Shown one piece after another: positions 22,001 through 38,526 of a stretch of DNA of 55,501 nt. The DNA is from Patescibacteria group bacterium (GTDB lineage: Bacteria > Patescibacteriota > Microgenomatia > UBA10105 > UBA927), in NCBI GenBank assembly GCA_023379025.1, contig JAMCTH010000012.1:1-55501 (forward strand), written 5' to 3'. The translations under genes and the position numbers were made by a program. The notes beneath the pieces were generated by a model, which did no database searches, was not told where the DNA came from, and saw nothing but the letters and a program-made list of their open reading frames with translations. Each line of letters opens with the position of its first letter. Position 1 is the stretch's first letter.

Positions 22001-22030
22001 TTTTTAAAGGAACTTCTTGGCCGCGGATAA
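19007..22030 (+). CDS. uvrA: UvrABC excinuclease subunit A
   Basis: This damage-sensing ABC ATPase has 1007 residues, somewhat longer than the usual 940. Two nucleotide-binding halves are visible: Walker A GVSGSGKSSLAFDTIYAEG near residue 30 with signature LAGGEAQRIRLASQ, and Walker A GLSGSGKSSLVVETLYPAL near residue 705 with LSGGEAQRVKLATE. Cys-pair zinc motifs (CPSCG, CPVC, CPDC, CEAC...CEVC) are present. An extra segment of about 40 residues (around 640-690) lies before the second half. It is next to uvrB and one gene away from uvrC. Confidence 0.96.
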   Translation: MEQLVIRGARQHNLKNITLALPKNSLIVFTGVSGSGKSSLAFDTIYAEGQRRYVESLSSYARQFLGVMDKPDVDAIEGLSPAISIDQKSTSHNPRSTVGTVTEIYDYLRLLYARIGHPHCPSCGREIARLSRQQMTEQILDLAREKLSERRLAQLRFFILAPVVRDRKGEFSGLFANLKTKGYRTIRVDGRYLETDSDMALIKTNKHTIDVVIDRVSIDRKTVKFLDDYARSEGAQGRGIPPGIAIRSRIGDAVEQAANLSDGLVIVTELTGAAFDLDKTPKQTVDHLFSEKFSCPVCNISIPEIEPRTFSFNTPHGACPDCSGLGEILTVDPSRVINPELSITEGGILPFARMFFHDTWFSRVITTMCDANGIDPRKALKHAGRDGLKALLYGTGERLYTVIGKNRFGDTTRIEERYPGIVPELKRRYSQSESDFVRTEIEKYMRTETCTACGGRRLKPEALTVTVEGKNIAAVTDLSIADARAFISSLPERLSSPSERTIAAPIVKEVSARLGFLTAVGLEYLTLARSATTLAGGEAQRIRLASQIGSGLSGVLYVLDEPSIGLHQRDNRKLIDTLVKLRDLGNTVIVVEHDREMMEHADYLVDFGPGAGENGGAVVAAGTVREVKSNPLSLTGAYLRDERRIRRKPVRAAELPASGRQLFEANEERHTKAPELLTLTGASEHNLQSIRVSFPIGTFICVTGLSGSGKSSLVVETLYPALAAAFSPMSKRTPGAYTGLTGTDALDNVILIDQSPIGRTPRSNPATYTGIFSPMREIYAELPESRLRGYKAGRFSFNVKGGRCEACEGEGQRKIEMQFLSDIYVTCEVCHGKRYNTETLDVLYHGKSIADVLDMTVDEALEFFRHYPGLSEKLSTIHDVGLGYIHLGQPAPTLSGGEAQRVKLATELSRKTTGKTVYILDEPTTGLHFADLEKLLDVLSRLTALGNTVIVIEHNLDIIKNADWIIDLGPEGGENGGKVVATGTPRDIAQNPASYTGRFLKELLGRG

Positions 22031-22070
22031 TGTAGAGAGCACCCGTCATATGCGTTACACTGGAGGAAGC

Positions 22071-23864
22071 ATGTCCCGGATCATACAGATTGCAGCATTC
22101 GTATTCACCTTTTTTTTTATTCCGTTGTTCCGCGTCGAAGCCGCCGGCGGGTATTTCCGTGCCGATTACGACGTGCAGTATGACGTTGCTCCGGGCGGCA
22201 AAACCATCGTCACCCAGACGGTCCAGCTCACCAACAAGGAAACCAATCTCTATCCCAAACAGTATTCGATAGACATCGATACGGATCAGATCAGGAACGT
22301 TGTTGCGCGTGATCCGTCCGGGCAGATCACGCCGCAGATCACCCAGTCCGACGGAAAAACCCATATCCTTCTGACCTTCGGCACGCAGGTGGTAGGACTT
22401 GGGAAAACTCTGAGTTTTACATTGCGCTACGAAGATCTTCTTATCGCCCAAAAAAACGGGCGGATCTGGGAAGTGAACATACCGGGGGTCTCGCCCGACC
22501 CGGACCTCGGCGATTACCGGGTGGGTTTAACCGTGCCGCCGGCCTTCGGCGATGCGGCATACGTGTCACCGCTTCCCGCGGACGGCACCCACTGGGACAA
22601 AGCGCAGATGCTCACGGGCGGCATCAGCGCGGCATACGGCACGAGCCAGGTGTTTTCGGTCGGTCTTTCGTATTATCTTGCCAACAGCAATGTCACTCCC
22701 GGCTATACGGAAATAGCCCTTCCCCCCGATACCGAATATCAGCATGTTTTTATCTCCGCCATCAACCCCAAACCCTCAAACGTCCGCGAAGACCGGGATG
22801 GAAACTGGCTTGCGCGTTACGACTTAAGCGGCGGGCAGAAACTGAACGTATCCGTATCCGCCCTGGTTGCCGTATCTCCGACGCCCCGGGCGGGATATCA
22901 TCAAAAACGCGGAGATCCCTCCCTCTATACCGGGCCGGACGAATACTGGGAATCCGGCGATCAGGAAATCGCCGCGGCTGCCCGCTCCCTGCATACCCCG
23001 AGGGCGATATACGATTATGTCGTTAAAACGCTCTCCTACGACTATGCGCGGGTCAACGGGCAACCGATCAGGAAAGGTGCTGCCGAGGCGCTGAAGACCC
23101 CGGATCAGTCGGTCTGCATGGAATTTACGGATCTCTTTGTTGCCCTGTCCCGCGCGGCGGGCATACCGGCACGGGAAGTCGTCGGCTATGCGTATACGAC
23201 CAATACCAAGCTGCGCCCGCTGTCGCTTGTTGCTGATGTTCTGCATTCGTGGCCGGAGTATTACGATACCGGGGCTTCACGCTGGATCGCCGTCGATCCG
23301 ACCTGGGGGAAAACCACCGGAGGCGTCGACTATTTCGACAAGATGGATTTTGACCATATCGCGCTTGCAGTCCACGGCGTTTCCAGTACGCTTCCGTATC
23401 CGGCGGGGTTTTACCGGAAGCCGGGGTCAAGCGGCAAAGACCTCGATGTCTCATTCACGGACCGCGATCTGCCCGTTTTCTCTCCGGGAAACCTCTCCGC
23501 TGCCGTTTCCTTCCCGTCCTGGGTCCTTTCCGGTACAGTGGCGGAGGGACTCGTCACCATACAAAACGTATCCGGCCTTGCCGCCGGGAATATCGCCTAT
23601 TCAATCCAGACCGAGCCGCACGTGTTTTCGGCATCCGATACGATCACGCGGGTTCCGCCGCTTTCCGAACTTTCCGTCCCCATAACGATTCGCGCGCCGC
23701 AGATCCTTACGATCGGGCGGGGAAGGATATCGGTTTCGGTATCGGGCGGGGAGGTCAACGCATATTATACGGTAGAACCGGTAGTAATCCTTCTTATTCC
23801 CATCGGATTTGCCGTTTCGATGGCTATCATTGCCGTATGGATTCTCTTCAGGAAAAAAACCTAG
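22071..23864 (+). CDS. Secreted, membrane-anchored transglutaminase-like protein
   Basis: The ATG at 22071 has a GGAGGA Shine-Dalgarno and gives 597 residues. A signal peptide (about residues 1-27, ending VEAAGG) is followed by beta-rich domains. The transglutaminase-like core has Cys in SVCMEFTDLF, His in LHSWPEYY and Asp in AVDPTWG. A C-terminal membrane segment (LLIPIGFAVSMAIIAVWIL) and the basic tail RKKT complete a type-I topology with the catalytic part outside. Such proteins may be proteases or cross-linkers of surface proteins. It overlaps the start of uvrC by 28 bases. Confidence 0.85.
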   Translation: MSRIIQIAAFVFTFFFIPLFRVEAAGGYFRADYDVQYDVAPGGKTIVTQTVQLTNKETNLYPKQYSIDIDTDQIRNVVARDPSGQITPQITQSDGKTHILLTFGTQVVGLGKTLSFTLRYEDLLIAQKNGRIWEVNIPGVSPDPDLGDYRVGLTVPPAFGDAAYVSPLPADGTHWDKAQMLTGGISAAYGTSQVFSVGLSYYLANSNVTPGYTEIALPPDTEYQHVFISAINPKPSNVREDRDGNWLARYDLSGGQKLNVSVSALVAVSPTPRAGYHQKRGDPSLYTGPDEYWESGDQEIAAAARSLHTPRAIYDYVVKTLSYDYARVNGQPIRKGAAEALKTPDQSVCMEFTDLFVALSRAAGIPAREVVGYAYTTNTKLRPLSLVADVLHSWPEYYDTGASRWIAVDPTWGKTTGGVDYFDKMDFDHIALAVHGVSSTLPYPAGFYRKPGSSGKDLDVSFTDRDLPVFSPGNLSAAVSFPSWVLSGTVAEGLVTIQNVSGLAAGNIAYSIQTEPHVFSASDTITRVPPLSELSVPITIRAPQILTIGRGRISVSVSGGEVNAYYTVEPVVILLIPIGFAVSMAIIAVWILFRKKT

Positions 23865-25240: not shown

Positions 25241-25645
25241 ATGAAACACATCGTCCGCGTGTTTTTGTTTGCGATGTTCGCCCTCTGGCTGACGAGTCAG
25301 ATATTTCCGACGATTGTCATCGCGGGAAGCTGGCAGACGCTCCTCGTTGCCGGGGCAATATTTGCCCTCCTTATGCTCTTTGTGCATCCGATGCTCAAGA
25401 TTCTCTTTATTCCCATCAATATCATCACCTTCGGCCTTCTCTCGTGGCTTATCAACGTCATCGTATTGTGGCTTCTCACGGTTTTTGTCCCGGCAGTCGA
25501 GGTGCGGCCGTGGCAGTTCCCGGGGTATAGTGTCGGCGGATTTGTCATTCCGGCCATATCGTTCTCCTACCCTCTTGCTCTCATCCTTTCGTCATTATCC
25601 ATCACCTTCATATCCAATATCCTGCACGACGTAAGTGAAGGCTGA
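25241..25645 (+). CDS. Phage-holin-family (PF04020-like) membrane protein
   Basis: This 134-residue protein has four predicted membrane segments: VRVFLFAMFALWLT, LLVAGAIFALLMLFVHPMLKIL, LSWLINVIVLWLLTVFVPAV, and the C-terminal SYPLALILSSLSITF. It matches the pattern of the small YvlD/holin-4-like proteins common in bacteria, which are not lysis proteins in a chromosome context. TTGCCG (25204-25209) and TACCAT (25227-25232) lie 17 bp apart, and the ATG follows 8 bases after the -10. The yvcK frame begins inside its last codons if GTG is used, or 4 bases after the stop if ATG is used. Confidence 0.75.
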   Translation: MKHIVRVFLFAMFALWLTSQIFPTIVIAGSWQTLLVAGAIFALLMLFVHPMLKILFIPINIITFGLLSWLINVIVLWLLTVFVPAVEVRPWQFPGYSVGGFVIPAISFSYPLALILSSLSITFISNILHDVSEG

Positions 25646-25649
25646 TCGT

Positions 25650-26645
25650 ATGAAAACTCAGGCACATATCGTCTGTATCGGCGGAGGAACCGGAACGTTT
25701 GTTGCGCTGAGAGGTCTCAAAAAATATACCGAAAACGTTTCCGCTATCGTTGCCATGAGCGACTCCGGCGGAAGCAACAAACGGATACGGGACGAATTCG
25801 GGCTCCTTCCGACATCGGACATCCGCCAGTGCCTGGTCGCCCTTTCGGACGAAAACGGCGGGGCGGGGCTCCTCAGGAAACTGTTCATGTACCGGTTCGA
25901 GAAAGGGGAAGGGATATCCGGCATGACGTTCGGCAACCTCTTTATGGCAGCCCTTGCCGATATCCTCGGTTCGCAGAAGGAAGCGATCCGTCAGACGGGC
26001 AAAGTGCTCCGTATCCACGGGTCAGTCATACCGGTATCGTTTACGAAAACAAACCTCTTTGCGCGCTACGAAGACGGCCATGTCCTGTCGGAAGAACACC
26101 TCATAGACGAACCGCCGCACGACGGAACCCTCCGGATCACCGATATCTCCCTCAAACCCAAAGCGCGGGTCAACCCGGAAGCCGTAACCGCGATTATGGA
26201 GGCAGATGCCGTACTTCTCGGCCCCGGCGATCTCTACACCTCCGTCATACCGAACCTTCTTGTCACCGGAATAGCCCGGGCGCTCATCAAAACCCACGCG
26301 AAAGTCATCTATACGGTGAACCTTATGACCAAATACGGACAAACGTACCGGTTTACCGCCCGCGATCATGTCCGCGCCCTCGAGCAATTCATCGGCCGAT
26401 CGCTCGACTACTGCCTCATGAACACCGAACCGCTGTCAGAAGAGGCGCTTGCGATTTACGGTAAACTGCACGAAGAGCCGGTAGCTGATGATCTCGGGAA
26501 AAAGGAGTATTATACGATCGTGAGGGCTAAACTCGTGAGCCGCCGGATCGTGCACAAGACCAAAAGCGACGTATTGGTGCGGAGCCTTATCAGGCATGAC
26601 AGCGGGAAGCTTGCCGCAGCAGTCATGGGAATACTGGCCAAATGA
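25650..26645 (+). CDS. yvcK: YvcK/CofD-family gluconeogenesis factor
   Basis: This 331-residue Rossmann-like protein binds UDP-sugars in characterised homologues and is needed for growth on gluconeogenic carbon and for cell shape. Seen here are VCIGGGTGTFVALRGLK (nucleotide-binding loop, about residues 7-23), VAMSDSGGSNKRIRDEFGLLPTSDIRQCL, GMTFGNLFMAAL and LLGPGDLYTSVIPNLLV. Its presence fits the gluconeogenic gene block at 4.9-15.5 kb. The ATG at 25650 is preferred; an in-frame GTG at 25635 would overlap the upstream gene. Confidence 0.92.
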   Translation: MKTQAHIVCIGGGTGTFVALRGLKKYTENVSAIVAMSDSGGSNKRIRDEFGLLPTSDIRQCLVALSDENGGAGLLRKLFMYRFEKGEGISGMTFGNLFMAALADILGSQKEAIRQTGKVLRIHGSVIPVSFTKTNLFARYEDGHVLSEEHLIDEPPHDGTLRITDISLKPKARVNPEAVTAIMEADAVLLGPGDLYTSVIPNLLVTGIARALIKTHAKVIYTVNLMTKYGQTYRFTARDHVRALEQFIGRSLDYCLMNTEPLSEEALAIYGKLHEEPVADDLGKKEYYTIVRAKLVSRRIVHKTKSDVLVRSLIRHDSGKLAAAVMGILAK

Positions 26646-26655
26646 ACGAAACTCT

Positions 26656-26874
26656 ATGAAAGCTGTTGCGCTCGTCATTCATCTCATTGTCTCGGTAGCT
26701 CTGGTCGGACTTATCCTCATGCAGTCAACCAAAGGTGGGCTCGGCAGCGCATTCGGCGGCGGGGAAGTCTACCGGACGCGCCGGGGGGCTGAGCGTATCG
26801 TGTTTCTGGCTACCGTCGTCGTCTCCGTACTCTTTCTCCTTTCCTCAATGGTGAATTTGCTGATACACTCATGA
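26656..26874 (+). CDS. secG: Preprotein translocase subunit SecG
   Basis: This 72-residue protein has two hydrophobic segments (VALVIHLIVSVALVGLILMQ and IVFLATVVVSVLFLLSSMVNLLI). They are linked by the SecG hallmark QSTKGGLGSAFGGGEVYRTRRG. It assists SecYEG-mediated export. It overlaps the next gene by four bases (ATGA). Confidence 0.92.
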   Translation: MKAVALVIHLIVSVALVGLILMQSTKGGLGSAFGGGEVYRTRRGAERIVFLATVVVSVLFLLSSMVNLLIHS

Positions 26875-28217
26875 AACTTTTCAAACGCGGACGGTACCTC
26901 TACCGGCTCATGGCGGAACTGTCCCGCAAGTATCGCGCAGCACTCCTGCTGGGTTTTTTGCTGGGACTGCTCGGTTCGATTGTTTTCCTCAAGATTTCTC
27001 CGGTCGTTGACCGCGAATTCTTGACGCCGACGGAACACATCGGCATGGTCGGGGATTTCACGCCGACGACCCTTCCCTATGATATTCAGTCCAAATTGAG
27101 CTTCGGTCTTACGCGTATCGCAGCGGACGGATCCGCTTCCGCCGCACTCGCCGGGTCATGGGAAGCGACCGCAAGCGGCAAAGTATACCTGTTTCACCTG
27201 AAAAAAAACGTATTTTGGCCCTCAGGCATGGAAGTGACCGCACGGGACGTCAATTACAATATCCGCGACGTTACGTTCCGTGCGCTTTCGGACCGCACGC
27301 TTGAAGCCCGGCTTTCGGAATCCTACAGCCCCTTTCCGACGCTCGTCTCCAAACCCATATTCCGAAGCGGACTTGTGGGATTCGGAGCCTATCGCGTCGA
27401 TTCAATACGGCTTGAGGGGGACAGGATATCGTACCTCCGCATCCTGCCCGCTCCCGGGACCCACGGCCCATCCGCCGAATACCGCTTTTACCCGACGGAA
27501 AGCATGGCCATCGTCGCGTACAAGAGGGGAGACGTCGATATCCTTCAGGATCTCACGTCTCCGGCGGACCTCACCGGCTGGAAAAATACGGCGGTCACGG
27601 TCAAAACGGATTACCAGGAAATCGTTTCGCTCTTTTACAACACGAAAAACCCGAAACTTACCGAAAAATCCCTGCGCCAGGCGCTTTCCTACGATATACC
27701 GGATATTGCCGCCGAACGCGCCTGGTCCCCCATATCGGTCAAGTCGTGGGCATACGAGGATCCGGGCAAGCATTACACCTACGAGCCCGATACCGCCAAA
27801 CCGCTTTTTGCCAAATCGGCGCTTGCCTCCGCATCCGCATCCCTCACCATCTCGACGTTTGCGCCGTATATTGACCTTGCCCAGAGCATCGCCAATAACT
27901 GGACGGCATTGGGAATACCCACGGGTGTCCGGGTCATCAACGACCTGTCCGACGGCTTTGAAGTACTCCTGACAGCCCAGTTCATCCCGCCGGATCCGGA
28001 CCAGTATCCGTTCTGGCATTCGACCCAGAAGGAAACAAACATCACGGGCTATACCAACGTCAAAATAGACAAGCTGCTTGAAGACGGGAGAGTCTCAACA
28101 AACGTCAGCACCAGAAAGGCTATCTATGCGGATTTTGCCAGGCGTCTCGTTGACGACGATCCGGTCACATTCCTCTACTACCCCAAGCGGTATACGATCA
28201 CCCGCGTTCACCGCTAG
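26871..28217 (+). CDS. Membrane-anchored peptide-binding protein (SBP family 5)
   Basis: This 448-residue protein has an N-terminal signal anchor (ALLLGFLLGLLGSIVFL, about residues 24-40). A periplasmic-binding-protein fold of the oligopeptide/nickel family (SBP_bac_5) follows: the pattern AADGSASAALAGSWEATASGKVYLFHLKKNVFWPSG, then VTARDVNY and SLRQALSYDI. No lipobox is visible, so it is held by the anchor. No permease or ATPase genes are adjacent, so its transporter must be elsewhere, or it acts alone as a sensor or scavenger. It is coupled to secG. Confidence 0.85.
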   Translation: MKLFKRGRYLYRLMAELSRKYRAALLLGFLLGLLGSIVFLKISPVVDREFLTPTEHIGMVGDFTPTTLPYDIQSKLSFGLTRIAADGSASAALAGSWEATASGKVYLFHLKKNVFWPSGMEVTARDVNYNIRDVTFRALSDRTLEARLSESYSPFPTLVSKPIFRSGLVGFGAYRVDSIRLEGDRISYLRILPAPGTHGPSAEYRFYPTESMAIVAYKRGDVDILQDLTSPADLTGWKNTAVTVKTDYQEIVSLFYNTKNPKLTEKSLRQALSYDIPDIAAERAWSPISVKSWAYEDPGKHYTYEPDTAKPLFAKSALASASASLTISTFAPYIDLAQSIANNWTALGIPTGVRVINDLSDGFEVLLTAQFIPPDPDQYPFWHSTQKETNITGYTNVKIDKLLEDGRVSTNVSTRKAIYADFARRLVDDDPVTFLYYPKRYTITRVHR

Positions 28218-28364: not shown

Positions 28365-30587
28365 ATGAAACAAACGTTTTTCACCGTCATCATTTTCTTC
28401 ATTCTCGTATGCCTGACCACTGCCTTTTTTACCTTCCGGCAGGCAAACCGCGAGTCGCAGCGTCTCACGACCGACCTTCAATACAGGACAACGCTCCTTG
28501 CGGACAGCCTCAAAGATAAAGTAGAGCCGTACGTGGTTTATGAAAACAAACCCGTACTCACGCGGATCATTACGACGTTCGTTGACGACAAGCGGATCAT
28601 GGGGGTCATGCTGTTTGACAACAAGGACAATCTTATCGCTTCCTCATCCGCCGATTCTACCGTTTCCGCAGAGATGACGACGCTCATCGCCAACTCCATG
28701 GACGAGGATAAAGTCAGCGCGGACACGCTGACGCTTGCAAAGAAAAAAGTCTATGTGTTTGCGCTTCCGCTTCATCAGGATACGAATGTCGTGGGTTCGC
28801 TTGTCCTTACCCAGAACGCCGGATTCATCGATGACCGGATCACCGAGATCTGGCGGACAAACATCATCCGTCTCGGTGTCCAGGCCACGATCGTATTTCT
28901 CGCCATATTCCTTACCCTCCGGTTTATCATCTACACACCGATCCACGATCTTGTAGAGTCCGTCCAGGCACTCCGCACCAATCCCGGTGACTCGAAAGCC
29001 CGCCGTCTCCCGGATAATTTCATGTTGCGGCCGCTCATCCGGGAGATCTCCCACGTCAATCAAAGCCTCATCGAAGCCCGTATGGCGGCAAGCGAAGAAG
29101 CAAAGATGCGCATCGAAAAACTCGACTCGCCGTGGACCGAACAGCGCCTCCACGAATACATCAAGCAAATCCTGAAAGACCGGACGATTTTTGTCGTCTC
29201 CAACCGGGAGCCGTATATCCATGTAAAAAGGGGAAATGACATTACCTATTACGTACCGGCGAGCGGCATGGTAACGGCTATTGAGCCTATGGTTCGTGCC
29301 TGTAACGGCACGTGGATTGCCCACGGAAGCGGCTCGGCCGACCGCCTGGTTGTCGATAAGCATGACGCGATCAGAGTCCCTCCGGATGAGCCGGGTTATA
29401 CCCTCCGGCGGGTATGGCTTACCCAGGAAGAGGAAAAGCGCTATTACTACGGATTTGCCAACGAAGGCCTGTGGCCGCTTTGCCATATGGCTCACACCCG
29501 TCCGGTATTCCGGGAAGAAGACTGGCACACCTACAAGGCGGTCAACGGCAAATTCGCCGAAGTCATACTCAAAGAAATGAAAAACACCGGCCACCCGCTT
29601 ATTCTCATACAGGATTACCATTTCGCAGCGCTTCCACGCATGATAAAAAATGCCCGTCCAGACGCGCAGATCGGTATGTTCTGGCATATTCCCTGGCCCA
29701 ACGCGGAAGCGTTTGGCATCTGCCCCTACCGCGCGGACATCCTGGACGGCATGCTCGGCGCGGACCTCATCGGGTTCCATACCCAGCTTCACTGCAATAA
29801 TTTTATCGAAACCATAGGAAGGGAACTCGAGTCGCTGATCGACTGGGAACAGTTTTCCGTCAAAAAAAACAGCCATACAAGCTATGTCCGTGCATTCCCG
29901 ATCAGCATTGCGTTTTCAGGTCGTCCTGAGGAGAAAAAAGGCGATGAGGGCGCACTCGTCAAGGAACTCAATCTCACCCCGGTAAAATATATCGGGGTCG
30001 GCGTAGACCGCCTCGACTATACGAAAGGCATCATAGAGCGCCTTAAGGCTATCGAGCTCCTCCTTGAGGAAAAGCCGGCGTACCGGAAAACCTTCACCTT
30101 TATCCAAATTGCACCACCGAGCAGGAGTCAGATCGCCGCGTATCACGCGCTCGAGACACAGGTCGAAGAAGAAACGAAACGCATCAATGCCCGGTTCCGG
30201 TCCGGCAGCTGGCAGCCCATCATACTCCTCAAAAAACACCATACGCACGGGGAAATCAACCGGTTTTTCAAAATAGCCAACGTGTGTCTTGTCACCTCGC
30301 TTCATGACGGCATGAATCTCGTTGCCAAGGAATTCGTCGCCGCGAGAAGCGATGAAAAAGGCGTCCTCATCCTTTCGAAGTTTGCCGGAGCCTCGCGGGA
30401 ACTGAAGGAAGCGCTCATTATCAATCCCTATGACATCCGCGAGCTTTCCGAAGCCATCAATACATCCCTCCAGATGAGCATTCTCGAGCAGAAATCGCGG
30501 ATGAAGGAGATGCGCGATACGGTCGGCCGGAACAATATTTACCGCTGGTCGGCAGACCTTCTCAAAACGCTGGTTGAGATCGAATAA
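28365..30587 (+). CDS. otsA: Membrane sensor fused to trehalose-6-phosphate synthase
   Basis: This 740-residue fusion has two parts. Residues 1-25 are a membrane segment, about 30-160 an extracytoplasmic sensor-like region (MGVMLFDNKDNLIASS), and about 166-190 a second membrane segment. A HAMP-like linker and helix (about 190-255) lead to a GT20 domain from residue 274. The GT20 part has the start FVVSNREPY, then MFWHIPWPNAEAFGICPY, GVGVDRLDYTKGI (donor-site Arg and Lys), and LVTSLHDGMNLVAKEFVAAR. It should make trehalose-6-phosphate from UDP-glucose and G6P at the membrane. Architecture suggests catalysis gated by an outside signal. otsB follows 5 bp later. Confidence 0.93.
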   Translation: MKQTFFTVIIFFILVCLTTAFFTFRQANRESQRLTTDLQYRTTLLADSLKDKVEPYVVYENKPVLTRIITTFVDDKRIMGVMLFDNKDNLIASSSADSTVSAEMTTLIANSMDEDKVSADTLTLAKKKVYVFALPLHQDTNVVGSLVLTQNAGFIDDRITEIWRTNIIRLGVQATIVFLAIFLTLRFIIYTPIHDLVESVQALRTNPGDSKARRLPDNFMLRPLIREISHVNQSLIEARMAASEEAKMRIEKLDSPWTEQRLHEYIKQILKDRTIFVVSNREPYIHVKRGNDITYYVPASGMVTAIEPMVRACNGTWIAHGSGSADRLVVDKHDAIRVPPDEPGYTLRRVWLTQEEEKRYYYGFANEGLWPLCHMAHTRPVFREEDWHTYKAVNGKFAEVILKEMKNTGHPLILIQDYHFAALPRMIKNARPDAQIGMFWHIPWPNAEAFGICPYRADILDGMLGADLIGFHTQLHCNNFIETIGRELESLIDWEQFSVKKNSHTSYVRAFPISIAFSGRPEEKKGDEGALVKELNLTPVKYIGVGVDRLDYTKGIIERLKAIELLLEEKPAYRKTFTFIQIAPPSRSQIAAYHALETQVEEETKRINARFRSGSWQPIILLKKHHTHGEINRFFKIANVCLVTSLHDGMNLVAKEFVAARSDEKGVLILSKFAGASRELKEALIINPYDIRELSEAINTSLQMSILEQKSRMKEMRDTVGRNNIYRWSADLLKTLVEIE

Positions 30588-30592
30588 CGGTT

Positions 30593-31405
30593 ATGACCCA
30601 TGCTGCTGCTCGAACTGAGGAGGCGGATAATTCACGGGCCGCTCTCGTTGTAGCGCTTGATTTTGACGGCACGCTGGCGCCGATTGCCCGGTCCTCCCGG
30701 CAGGCAACGATCGGAGCGGCTCCACGTGCGGTTCTCCGTCGGCTTGTATCACTCACGGCGGTCCGGCTTGCCGTCATATCCGGAAGAAGTCTCAATGATA
30801 TAAGAACGAAGGTCGGAGTCAGCGGCATTACCTATGCAGGAAACCACGGACTCGAATGGAGTCTCGATGGCATAACGGCGAACGCGCCCGTACCCGCCGG
30901 CGAAAGCCGGGCTGTCCGTTCCTGCACACGAACATTAAAACCGTTCGAGTCGCGTTTTCCCGGATGTACCGTCGAGGATAAAGGCATGACGGTTGCCCTT
31001 CATTACCGCGGTGTCCGGCCGCGGATGCGGAGCCGTCTCCTGAGAGCGCTTTCCGGTACCCTTCGTGACCCGCGCCTGGCATCCCGCATACGGATCATCC
31101 GCGGGAAAATGGTCTTTGACGTCCGGCCGGCCTTCCCCTGGACCAAAGCAGACTTTATCCGGCTTCTCCTCCGGCATGAGCGCTTACCGGCGGCAACCGG
31201 CCGGCTCATCTATATCGGGGACGACGCCACCGATGAGGATGTTTTTTCGGCATTTCCGTCCGCCATGACGGTCCGGGTCGGACGGGGGAAACGGACCTTC
31301 GCGCGTTACCGCATCCGCTCACCCAAAACGGTGACTGCCTTCCTTTCTCTGCTCGTTGCCCGGTATGAAACTCAGAAACCTGCCGTCGCTCACCGTTATG
31401 CCTGA
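30593..31405 (+). CDS. otsB: Trehalose-6-phosphate phosphatase
   Basis: This 270-residue HAD-fold enzyme has the nucleophile motif ALDFDGTLAPIA (Asp23, Asp25). NHGLEWSLDG is the TPP cap-region signature. KGMTVALHYR and GKMVFDVRPAFPWTKADFIRLLL are also present, and YIGDDATDEDVF carries the metal-binding acidic pair. It removes phosphate from T6P made by the upstream fusion to give trehalose, an osmo- and stress protectant. The spacing (5 bp) indicates one operon. Confidence 0.94.
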   Translation: MTHAAARTEEADNSRAALVVALDFDGTLAPIARSSRQATIGAAPRAVLRRLVSLTAVRLAVISGRSLNDIRTKVGVSGITYAGNHGLEWSLDGITANAPVPAGESRAVRSCTRTLKPFESRFPGCTVEDKGMTVALHYRGVRPRMRSRLLRALSGTLRDPRLASRIRIIRGKMVFDVRPAFPWTKADFIRLLLRHERLPAATGRLIYIGDDATDEDVFSAFPSAMTVRVGRGKRTFARYRIRSPKTVTAFLSLLVARYETQKPAVAHRYA

Positions 31406-36979: not shown

Positions 36980-36987
36980 TATCCGTG

Positions 36988-38526
36988 ATGGAAGAAGAAT
37001 TTGATTTTACAAAATTGAAGTATGTCCTCTATGCTCGGAAATCCACAGATGATGTAGGAAGGCAACCAAAATCCATAGGTGATCAAATTGCCGAATGCAA
37101 GGAACTCGCAGCGAGAGAAGGACTTCATATTGTCGGTGATCCCCTCACAGAAACAAAATCTGCAAAAAGACCCAATCAACGACCCGTGTTCACACAAATG
37201 ATTAAAGATCTCAAAAAGGGCATCTATGACGGAATACTCTCATGGAACCCGGATCGGTTGGCTAGGAATATGAGAGAGGGCGGAGAAATCATTGACATGA
37301 TTGACGAAGGACAGATTAAGGATTTAAAGTTCGTCACCCATCATTTTTCAAAAGATGCAAACGGGAAAATGCTATTGGGGTTAGCGTTTGTTTTATCAAA
37401 GCAATACTCGGATAACCTTTCCCAAAACGTCAAACGTGGGGTCACTAGGAGACTGTCAGAGGGTAAATCGCCGACGCCGAAACATGGATACATAAAGGAC
37501 TCCGAAAGACTTTACCGACCAGATGGTAAAAACTTTGAACTAATATGTAATATTTGGGAATTAAGAGCAGAAGGAACTTCGTATGAAAACCTTGTAAAGT
37601 ATCTAAACGACAACAACTATGCGAGAACTACTAAACGCGGCAGAAGAATTGCAATTACTGGACAAATGCTTACTGATCTCTTTAAGGATCCATTTTATTA
37701 CGGTATTTTAGTTCAAAAGGATCAAAAAGTAGACTTACGATCTCTTTACAACTTTCAACCTGCAATTACGGAAGAGCTATATAATAAAGTGCAACAGCTC
37801 TCATACAGGAAAATATATTCCTCTAAAAAGCCTACTGCTGCATTTTATCCGCTAAAAAAGATGATAATATGTTCGTTTTGTGGCAGTAATATGTACGTCG
37901 GAGCTTCAACGGGAAGGTATCAGCGATACTTGAATGCAAGGTGCGGAAATGCATCTTGCCGTCGCAAGGACAAATCTATACGAATGAAGATTGTATTTGA
38001 CTTTATATATAAATTATTTGCTAAAGGATTAAACTTTACTGAGAAAGAATACGACAAATACTATGATAGCCTGTCAATGCTAACTGATAAAAAAAGACAA
38101 GAACTTACCATTGAGCTCCACAGCAAGCAGGCTATACTTAAAAAAGTAGATGCAGACCTGAATGAAAGAGCTTTAGGAATCGTAAAATTGAAGAAGGGCT
38201 CAGAGACGTGGAATATCAACGAACGGAAAATAAATAAACTAAGCAACCAAAAAATAGGTCTGCAAACTCAAATAGACAAGTTAAAGGAAAAAAATAGCAA
38301 TCCGGAAGCGGAGCAGCTAAATCTTGAGGATTTCTTGAACCTTTCAAAAAATGCTTCTGTAATAGTCCAATCGGCGAATGCGGTCGTAAAAGATCTAATT
38401 TGCCGAAAAATCTTTTTGAACCTTACTGTTGATAACGAGAAAGTATTGTCCTATCAAGCTAAAGAACCATTCGCTACCCTTCTAAAACAGAGGGGGCTGT
38501 TATCTTGTGCGGACGAGAGGACTTGA
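36988..38526 (+). CDS. Large serine recombinase (integrase) of the accessory element
   Basis: The 512 residues contain an N-terminal resolvase domain with the catalytic Ser in YARKSTDD and IGDQIAECKELA, and NPDRLARNMREGGEI. The recombinase domain includes RGVTRRLSEGKSPTPKHGY. A zinc ribbon (CSFCGSNMY...CGNASC) and a C-terminal coiled coil (about residues 355-430) follow. TATAAT at 36975-36980 ends seven bases before the ATG. The last 19 bases of the gene, including the stop, lie within the 3' end of tRNA-Leu(GAG) on the other strand, as expected if the element inserted there. It should catalyse integration and excision of the AT-rich region. Confidence 0.93.
   Translation: MEEEFDFTKLKYVLYARKSTDDVGRQPKSIGDQIAECKELAAREGLHIVGDPLTETKSAKRPNQRPVFTQMIKDLKKGIYDGILSWNPDRLARNMREGGEIIDMIDEGQIKDLKFVTHHFSKDANGKMLLGLAFVLSKQYSDNLSQNVKRGVTRRLSEGKSPTPKHGYIKDSERLYRPDGKNFELICNIWELRAEGTSYENLVKYLNDNNYARTTKRGRRIAITGQMLTDLFKDPFYYGILVQKDQKVDLRSLYNFQPAITEELYNKVQQLSYRKIYSSKKPTAAFYPLKKMIICSFCGSNMYVGASTGRYQRYLNARCGNASCRRKDKSIRMKIVFDFIYKLFAKGLNFTEKEYDKYYDSLSMLTDKKRQELTIELHSKQAILKKVDADLNERALGIVKLKKGSETWNINERKINKLSNQKIGLQTQIDKLKEKNSNPEAEQLNLEDFLNLSKNASVIVQSANAVVKDLICRKIFLNLTVDNEKVLSYQAKEPFATLLKQRGLLSCADERT

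What the first reader, a model, noticed from the sequence alone, without database searches (positions are those of the whole stretch)
28365..30587. Trehalose-6-phosphate synthase fused to a two-pass membrane sensor with HAMP-like linker
The N-terminal 270 residues have the layout of a chemoreceptor or histidine-kinase input module, but the output is a GT20 sugar transferase. Trehalose synthesis would then be switched by an extracellular cue (osmolarity, wall stress or a ligand) in one protein, without a transcription step. otsB follows directly. I cannot say how common this fusion is.
Basis: partly seen in the sequence, partly recalled or inferred. Interest (0 to 1): 0.7.

Follow-up and report, generated by a model that had tools for sequence, protein, structure and literature searches.

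The report
Trehalose-making enzyme with built-in membrane sensor
A small-genome candidate-phylum bacterium carries a trehalose-6-phosphate synthase joined in one protein to an outside-facing sensor of the kind normally found on signalling kinases; the same fusion is kept in at least three phyla, which suggests, but does not prove, that the cell controls sugar-protectant synthesis directly from a signal outside the membrane.

Summary
The ORF at 28365-30587 (740 aa) is a real, conserved fusion. Residues 276-736 are a GT20 trehalose-6-phosphate synthase with catalytic residues intact. Residues 1-256 are TM1, a Cache-type sensor domain, TM2 and a divergent HAMP module. otsB starts 5 bp downstream. 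No Pfam HAMP match is found in any of 22 members, but the whole N-terminal module is homologous to that of sensor histidine kinases with canonical HAMP, and its predicted fold best matches WalK's Cache domain. The fusion occurs in 13/380 sampled Patescibacteria, about 23/247 Desulfobacterota and 10/274 Gammaproteobacteria genomes. All 54 fused GT20s form one clade, so one fusion event is likely. The sensor is under purifying selection. The HAMP-to-enzyme linker has near-fixed length within clades, and the main difference between clades is exactly 7 residues (one heptad), while the HAMP connector varies. This fits helical signal transmission to the enzyme. The cue, the direction of control and regulation itself are untested. 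No paper in the searched library describes the fusion, and a Cache-superfamily survey lists signalling outputs only. Verdict: observation confirmed, interpretation plausible but unproven; a known receptor type with an unusual metabolic output.

The parts
28365..30587 (+). Whole sensor-GT20 fusion gene, 740 aa
   Evidence: Uninterrupted ORF; 51 full-length proteins with the same architecture
28374..28430 (+). TM1, residues about 4-22
   Evidence: Hydropathy 2.52; helix 2-57 in the AlphaFold2 model
28461..28820 (+). Cache-type sensor domain, residues about 33-152, predicted extracytoplasmic
   Evidence: Foldseek to WalK ectodomain, E about 2e-7, TM-score 0.75 of target; weak Cache-family matches in several members; dN/dS 0.13-0.35
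28863..28919 (+). TM2, residues about 167-185
   Evidence: Hydropathy 2.16; part of helix 153-205
28923..29084 (+). Divergent HAMP module, residues about 187-240 (AS1 187-205, variable connector 206-219, AS2 from 220)
   Evidence: Profile-profile match to canonical HAMP of histidine kinases, prob. 95%, controls under 1%; no Pfam HAMP match
29085..29132 (+). Stalk/linker, residues 241-256, between HAMP and enzyme
   Evidence: Length P223-W257 is 35, 34 (33 once) or 27 residues according to clade
29133..29180 (+). Short helix before the enzyme core, residues 257-272; W257 and L262 invariant
   Evidence: Kept in free-standing relatives of the same GT20 subfamily, so it belongs to the enzyme
29190..30572 (+). 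GT20 trehalose-6-phosphate synthase domain, residues 276-736
   Evidence: PF00982 E 7e-114; catalytic and substrate columns shared with E. coli OtsA
30593..31405 (+). otsB, trehalose-6-phosphate phosphatase, 270 aa
   Evidence: T6PP TIGR00685 140.9 bits against a cut-off of 68; otsB homologue found in 36 of 54 fusion loci

Best explanation
This is a membrane-bound trehalose-6-phosphate synthase that works as a one-component receptor enzyme. A Cache domain outside the cytoplasmic membrane perceives a cue that is still unknown. TM2 and a divergent HAMP/coiled-coil stalk carry the conformational change across the membrane and alter the activity (or the dimer arrangement) of the cytoplasmic GT20 domain. 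The product, trehalose-6-phosphate, goes to OtsB, encoded 5 bp downstream. Shown here: the architecture, homology to kinase input modules, catalytic residues, one probable origin, selection on the sensor and the linker-length pattern. Inferred: topology, dimerisation, cue binding and allosteric control.
For: Full-length conservation across three phyla. One clade for all 54 fused GT20s. A profile of fused sensors recovers histidine kinases matched from TM1 through HAMP, E down to 6e-27, with Pfam HAMP, HisKA and HATPase_c in the two scanned. Profile-profile 99.7% for the module and 95% for HAMP alone, controls under 1%. WalK-like Cache fold. Linker length fixed within clades and differing mainly by exactly one heptad, with a free connector. 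Sensor dN/dS 0.13-0.35. Catalytic residues intact. otsB next to the gene in 36 of 54 loci. In the sampled class the sensor was seen only in front of GT20-sized frames.
Against: No activity data and no cue. HAMP is degenerate: no Pfam match in any member, and one subclade lacks the AS1 proline. The model breaks the helix near residues 252-258 with low confidence. The heptad step is probably a single event, the Patescibacteria group has one extra residue, and heptad periodicity is not seen in the Gammaproteobacteria group. Free-standing GT20s of the same subfamily exist, so the sensor is not needed for the enzyme as such.
Confidence: 0.68

Rival explanations
1. The N-terminal module is now only a membrane anchor and dimerisation device that keeps the synthase at the membrane, near OtsB, a transporter or the envelope, and no longer passes a signal.
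For: HAMP consensus is lost; the sensor evolves faster than the enzyme; only R41 and G144 are invariant, or nearly so, in the sensor across clades; a paralogue without TM2 and AS1 exists (L120).
Against: A mere anchor would not need a folded Cache domain under purifying selection, a kinase-type HAMP position, or a stalk of clade-fixed length beside a freely varying connector.
Confidence: 0.22
2. Signalling runs inside-out or feeds elsewhere: substrate or trehalose-6-phosphate occupancy of GT20 is reported through HAMP to the Cache domain and a periplasmic partner.
For: Other HAMP proteins can signal in both directions (a paper title on LapD, PMC5231407, seen, says so); OtsA was proposed as an osmotic stress sensor in Arthrobacter (PMC5685639).
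Against: No conserved partner gene was found beyond otsB, though partners were not searched systematically; GT20 is catalytically intact and paired with otsB.
Confidence: 0.08
3. Artefact: two separate genes joined by an assembly error or a mis-called start.
For: None found; the window is one contig of a 12-contig assembly.
Against: 51 full-length proteins with the same junction in three phyla; no stop inside; no conserved internal start.
Confidence: 0.01

Closest known systems
Cache-HAMP sensor histidine kinases (WalK/YycG; the Desulfobacterota kinases in loci L109-L114)
   Same: TM1, extracytoplasmic Cache domain, TM2 and HAMP, homologous over about 245 columns; fold match to WalK
   Different: Output is a GT20 metabolic glycosyltransferase instead of HisKA/HATPase_c; HAMP consensus is degenerate
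OtsA trehalose-6-phosphate synthase (E. coli OtsA; PDB 5jij, 1gz5)
   Same: GT20 fold family, shared catalytic and substrate columns, paired with otsB
   Different: E. coli OtsA is a free-standing protein without the membrane module; this subfamily falls below the OtsA equivalog cut-off (430 of 565 bits)
Bifunctional OtsA-OtsB fusions (PRK14501 type) of other Patescibacteria
   Same: GT20 fused to a second domain in one polypeptide, trehalose pathway
   Different: The partner is the phosphatase at the C-terminus; no membrane sensor; a separate part of the tree
Transmembrane diguanylate cyclases with CHASE8-HAMP (DgcN/YfiN)
   Same: Weak NCBIfam match of residues 33-206 (E 6e-5, far below cut-off); one-component receptor with an enzymatic output
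   Different: The output makes a second messenger (GGDEF), not a metabolite
Thermoproteus tenax msc-gt-tpsp operon (PMC3634074)
   Same: Trehalose synthesis tied to a putative membrane stress protein and to an activator
   Different: Separate proteins; a mechanosensitive channel and a glycosyltransferase activator, no Cache-HAMP fusion

Membership tests
GT20 / trehalose-6-phosphate synthase | GT20 domain over its full length | tested here: met
   Residues 276-736 cover profile positions 4-471 of 473, E 7e-114
GT20 / trehalose-6-phosphate synthase | Catalytic and substrate-binding residues of OtsA | tested here: met
   Columns R10, G23, Y77, W86, D131, H155, R263, K268, R301, D362, E370 of E. 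coli OtsA (Met1 numbering) are identical; the roles are from memory of OtsA structures
GT20 / trehalose-6-phosphate synthase | NCBIfam OtsA equivalog cut-off | tested here: not met
   TIGR02400 429.9 bits against 564.85; PRK14501 471 against 634. A divergent subfamily; the product is inferred from active site and otsB
GT20 / trehalose-6-phosphate synthase | T6P synthase activity | not testable with these tools
   Needs an enzyme assay
HAMP domain | Match to the Pfam HAMP model | tested here: not met
   No match in 22 members and none at this gene in the own-genome HAMP search
HAMP domain | Homology to canonical HAMP in the position directly after TM2 | tested here: met
   hhalign prob. 95%, E 4e-8 for all members, 76% for the Patescibacteria subset; controls under 1%
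HAMP domain | Two helices joined by a connector | tested here: inconclusive
   Helices 153-205 and 222-253 with a break in the model, but pLDDT is 52-75 there and no dimer was modelled
Cache superfamily sensor | Cache/PAS-like fold between two TM helices | tested here: met
   Model with sheet and long N-terminal helix; top solved matches are Cache ectodomains of WalK and others
Cache superfamily sensor | Curated Cache-family score cut-off | tested here: not met
   CHASE8 20.7 bits against 27 for this protein; other members match sCache_3_2, Cache_WalK or dCache_1 only weakly
One-component transmembrane receptor enzyme | Output activity changes with the external cue | not testable with these tools
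   Needs an experiment

The most novel reading that the evidence does not exclude
A transmembrane Cache-HAMP receptor whose direct output is a biosynthetic metabolic enzyme: an outside cue sets trehalose-6-phosphate synthesis allosterically in one protein, without kinase, second messenger or transcription, in a lineage spread over at least three phyla including tiny-genome Patescibacteria.
Probability: 0.6. Interest if true: 0.75.

Novelty: new variant of a known kind. Interest (0 to 1): 0.58.

Why it matters
The published survey of Cache sensors reports that, apart from the truncated SMP_2 family, they sit in proteins with known signal-transduction outputs (PMC4822843), and the signalling-helix survey lists kinases, cyclases, phosphodiesterases, phosphatases and AAA+ ATPases (PMC1592074). 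A receptor acting directly on a glycosyltransferase that makes a compatible solute would show that HAMP-type signalling can gate primary metabolism. It would also be a very short route from an external signal to osmoprotection, notable in a 1.1-Mb genome where the searches found only three HisKA domains and one canonical HAMP. The enzyme can be assayed and sensor modules of this type can be exchanged in the laboratory, so the idea is directly testable.

Tried and rejected
(1) Separate sensor protein or mis-joined genes: rejected by 51 full-length proteins with the same junction. (2) Canonical HAMP by Pfam: not met; replaced by a profile-profile test with controls. (3) Sensor encoded next to the free-standing GT20s: none found in the fetched loci by the sensor profile; a related kinase lies about 10 kb away in L109 and L110 but was not followed. 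(4) Glucosylglycerol-phosphate synthase identity: that model scores far below its cut-off (288 of 569 bits). (5) Plasmid-borne fused homologues: none; no plasmid record covers 80% of the query. (6) Viral structure library for the sensor: only general Cache/PAS and kinase-like matches. (7) Prior description: no paper in the held library has otsA plus 'HAMP domain'; one irrelevant fungal paper has trehalose-6-phosphate synthase plus 'HAMP domain'. Most subscription journals and domain databases such as InterPro were not searchable; the architecture may well be listed there without comment.

Full report
What is there. The ORF at 28365-30587 (+) encodes 740 aa without interruption. Residues 276-736 are a GT20 domain (PF00982, E 7e-114), closest among solved structures to a trehalose-6-phosphate synthase (5jij, E 3e-76). 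Aligned with E. coli OtsA (fetched from NC_000913.3), the columns of the known substrate and catalytic residues are identical (R10, G23, Y77, W86, D131, H155, R263, K268, R301, D362, E370 with Met1 numbering; the role of each residue is from memory of the OtsA structures). otsB follows after 5 bp (T6PP model 140.9 bits against a cut-off of 68). This is the only GT20 gene found in the 1.11-Mb, 95% complete genome. The nearest named relatives are Candidatus Roizmanbacteria MAGs (66-67% identity in the best segment), so the host belongs to the Patescibacteria.

The N-terminal module. Two hydrophobic helices (4-22, 167-185) flank about 145 residues. AlphaFold2 on 22 homologues (mean pLDDT 81) gives helix 2-57, a PAS-like sheet with helix 102-113, helix 153-205, a break, helix 222-253 and a short helix 259-271. 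Foldseek places it with WalK: full-length WalK model E 8e-11 over 268 columns, crystallised WalK ectodomain E about 2e-7 with TM-score about 0.75 of the target; then KinD, DctB and Tlp3 sensor domains. Sequence models match only weakly, but the recurrent ones in this region (CHASE8, sCache_3_2, Cache_WalK, dCache_1, SMP_2) are mostly sensor families, several of them listed in the Cache superfamily by PMC4822843. No member has a Pfam HAMP match.

Is it a real receptor module? A profile made only from fused proteins finds, in Desulfobacterota, histidine kinases matched from TM1 through HAMP (E down to 6e-27). In the two kinases scanned, Pfam finds HAMP at about 186-236, HisKA and HATPase_c. Profile-profile comparison of the sensor modules gives prob. 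99.7, E 5e-26 over 245 columns. The region after TM2 alone gives prob. 95, E 4e-8 (76% for the Patescibacteria subset), while reversed, column-shuffled and HisKA-helix controls stay under 1%. So the module is a Cache-HAMP input module whose HAMP has diverged.

How common and how old. Sampling gave 13 of 380 Patescibacteria genomes, about 23 of 247 Desulfobacterota genomes (two of them split or interrupted) and 10 of 274 Gammaproteobacteria genomes. The first sample includes the window's own genome and the other two the genome used as centre. In the class of this genome 12 of 137 genomes carry the sensor, 11 in open frames of 743-776 aa and one cut by a contig end; no other output was seen at that threshold. 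A tree of 103 GT20 domains puts all 54 fused ones in one clade (SH-aLRT 97; one change of label against about 34 with shuffled labels), nested among free-standing GT20s of the same subfamily (quick method, no bootstrap). One Patescibacterium (L014) groups with the Desulfobacterota/Gammaproteobacteria subclade, and in the family of this genome only a minority of sampled members carry the fusion; both suggest transfer or loss. Free-standing relatives begin at the short helix equivalent to residues 257-272, so that helix belongs to the enzyme and the sensor was added in front of it.

Linker mechanics. In 51 aligned fusions the stretch from P223 to the invariant W257 is 35 residues in the main Patescibacteria group, 34 (33 once) in one Desulfobacterota group and one Gammaproteobacteria group, and 27 in the remaining clade. 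The stretch before it, from AS1 over the HAMP connector, varies from 27 to 38. The step from 34 to 27 is exactly one heptad. Hydrophobicity in the Desulfobacterota AS2/linker has its strongest period at 3.5 residues; the Gammaproteobacteria group does not show this. This is what a helical transmission element would show (PMC1592074, describes coiled-coil segments that differ in the number of heptads). It is not proof: the 7-residue step is probably one event, the Patescibacteria carry one extra residue, and the model breaks the helix near residues 252-258 with low confidence.

Selection. In pairs with measurable synonymous change the sensor has dN/dS of about 0.13-0.35 and the GT20 domain about 0.05-0.18 (simple counting method, some pairs saturated). 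The sensor is maintained but evolves faster than the enzyme.

Operon. An otsB homologue was found in 36 of 54 fusion loci, mostly directly downstream. Where none was found the fetched flank was often short, so absence is not established. With the active-site residues this makes trehalose-6-phosphate the likely product, though the OtsA equivalog cut-off is not reached (430 of 565 bits).

Mechanism and status of each step. Shown by sequence or model: fusion, module homology, intact catalytic residues, conserved junction, purifying selection. Inferred: outside location of the Cache domain, dimerisation, transmission through HAMP, allosteric control of GT20. Unknown: the cue and the sign of control. 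The main rival is that the module is now only an anchor or dimeriser (0.22).

Novelty. In the held literature no paper combines otsA with a HAMP domain, and the only paper with trehalose-6-phosphate synthase and HAMP domain is about a fungal phosphorelay. PMC4822843 states that Cache proteins otherwise have known signal-transduction outputs; that survey built its models from proteins with such outputs, so this class could have been missed by construction. Trehalose synthesis linked to a membrane stress protein has a precedent in Thermoproteus tenax, with separate proteins (PMC3634074); in Arthrobacter OtsA itself was proposed as an osmotic stress sensor acting on morphology (PMC5685639). I therefore rate this a new variant of a known kind: a known receptor type with an unusual, metabolic output.

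Noticed in passing
L109:1539-3032 and L110:9835-11313 (-): In two related Desulfobacterota genomes a histidine kinase with the same sensor module lies about 10 kb from a free-standing GT20 of the same subfamily with its otsB; possibly a split version of the same circuit, possibly chance.
   Followed up: no
L120:1188-3314 (+): A gammaproteobacterial paralogue (708 aa) keeps TM1 and most of the sensor but lacks TM2 and HAMP AS1, so the sensor and enzyme would lie on the same side of the membrane; the same genome also has a complete copy.
   Followed up: partly
L014:1414-3666 (-): One Patescibacteria fusion has the 27-residue linker and groups with Desulfobacterota/Gammaproteobacteria, a likely separate acquisition.
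   Followed up: partly
L015, L016, L041 (free-standing GT20 genes): Some Patescibacteria of the same and related groups carry free-standing GT20s of the same subfamily, starting at the short helix equivalent to residue 257.
   Followed up: partly
26871-28217 (+): Family 5 extracellular solute-binding protein (SBP_bac_5) directly upstream of the fusion; a weak Sigma70_r4_2 match at its N-terminus is below cut-off.
   Followed up: no
25635-26642 (+): CofD-like protein (2-phospho-L-lactate transferase family, E 6e-83), after uvrA- and uvrC-like genes upstream.
   Followed up: no
22017-23864 (+): ORF of 615 aa with a transglutaminase-like core domain (E 2e-17), between the uvrA-like and uvrC-like ORFs.
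   Followed up: no
36985-38523 (+): Large serine recombinase (Resolvase, Recombinase and Zn-ribbon domains), a possible mark of an integrated element; not examined.
   Followed up: no
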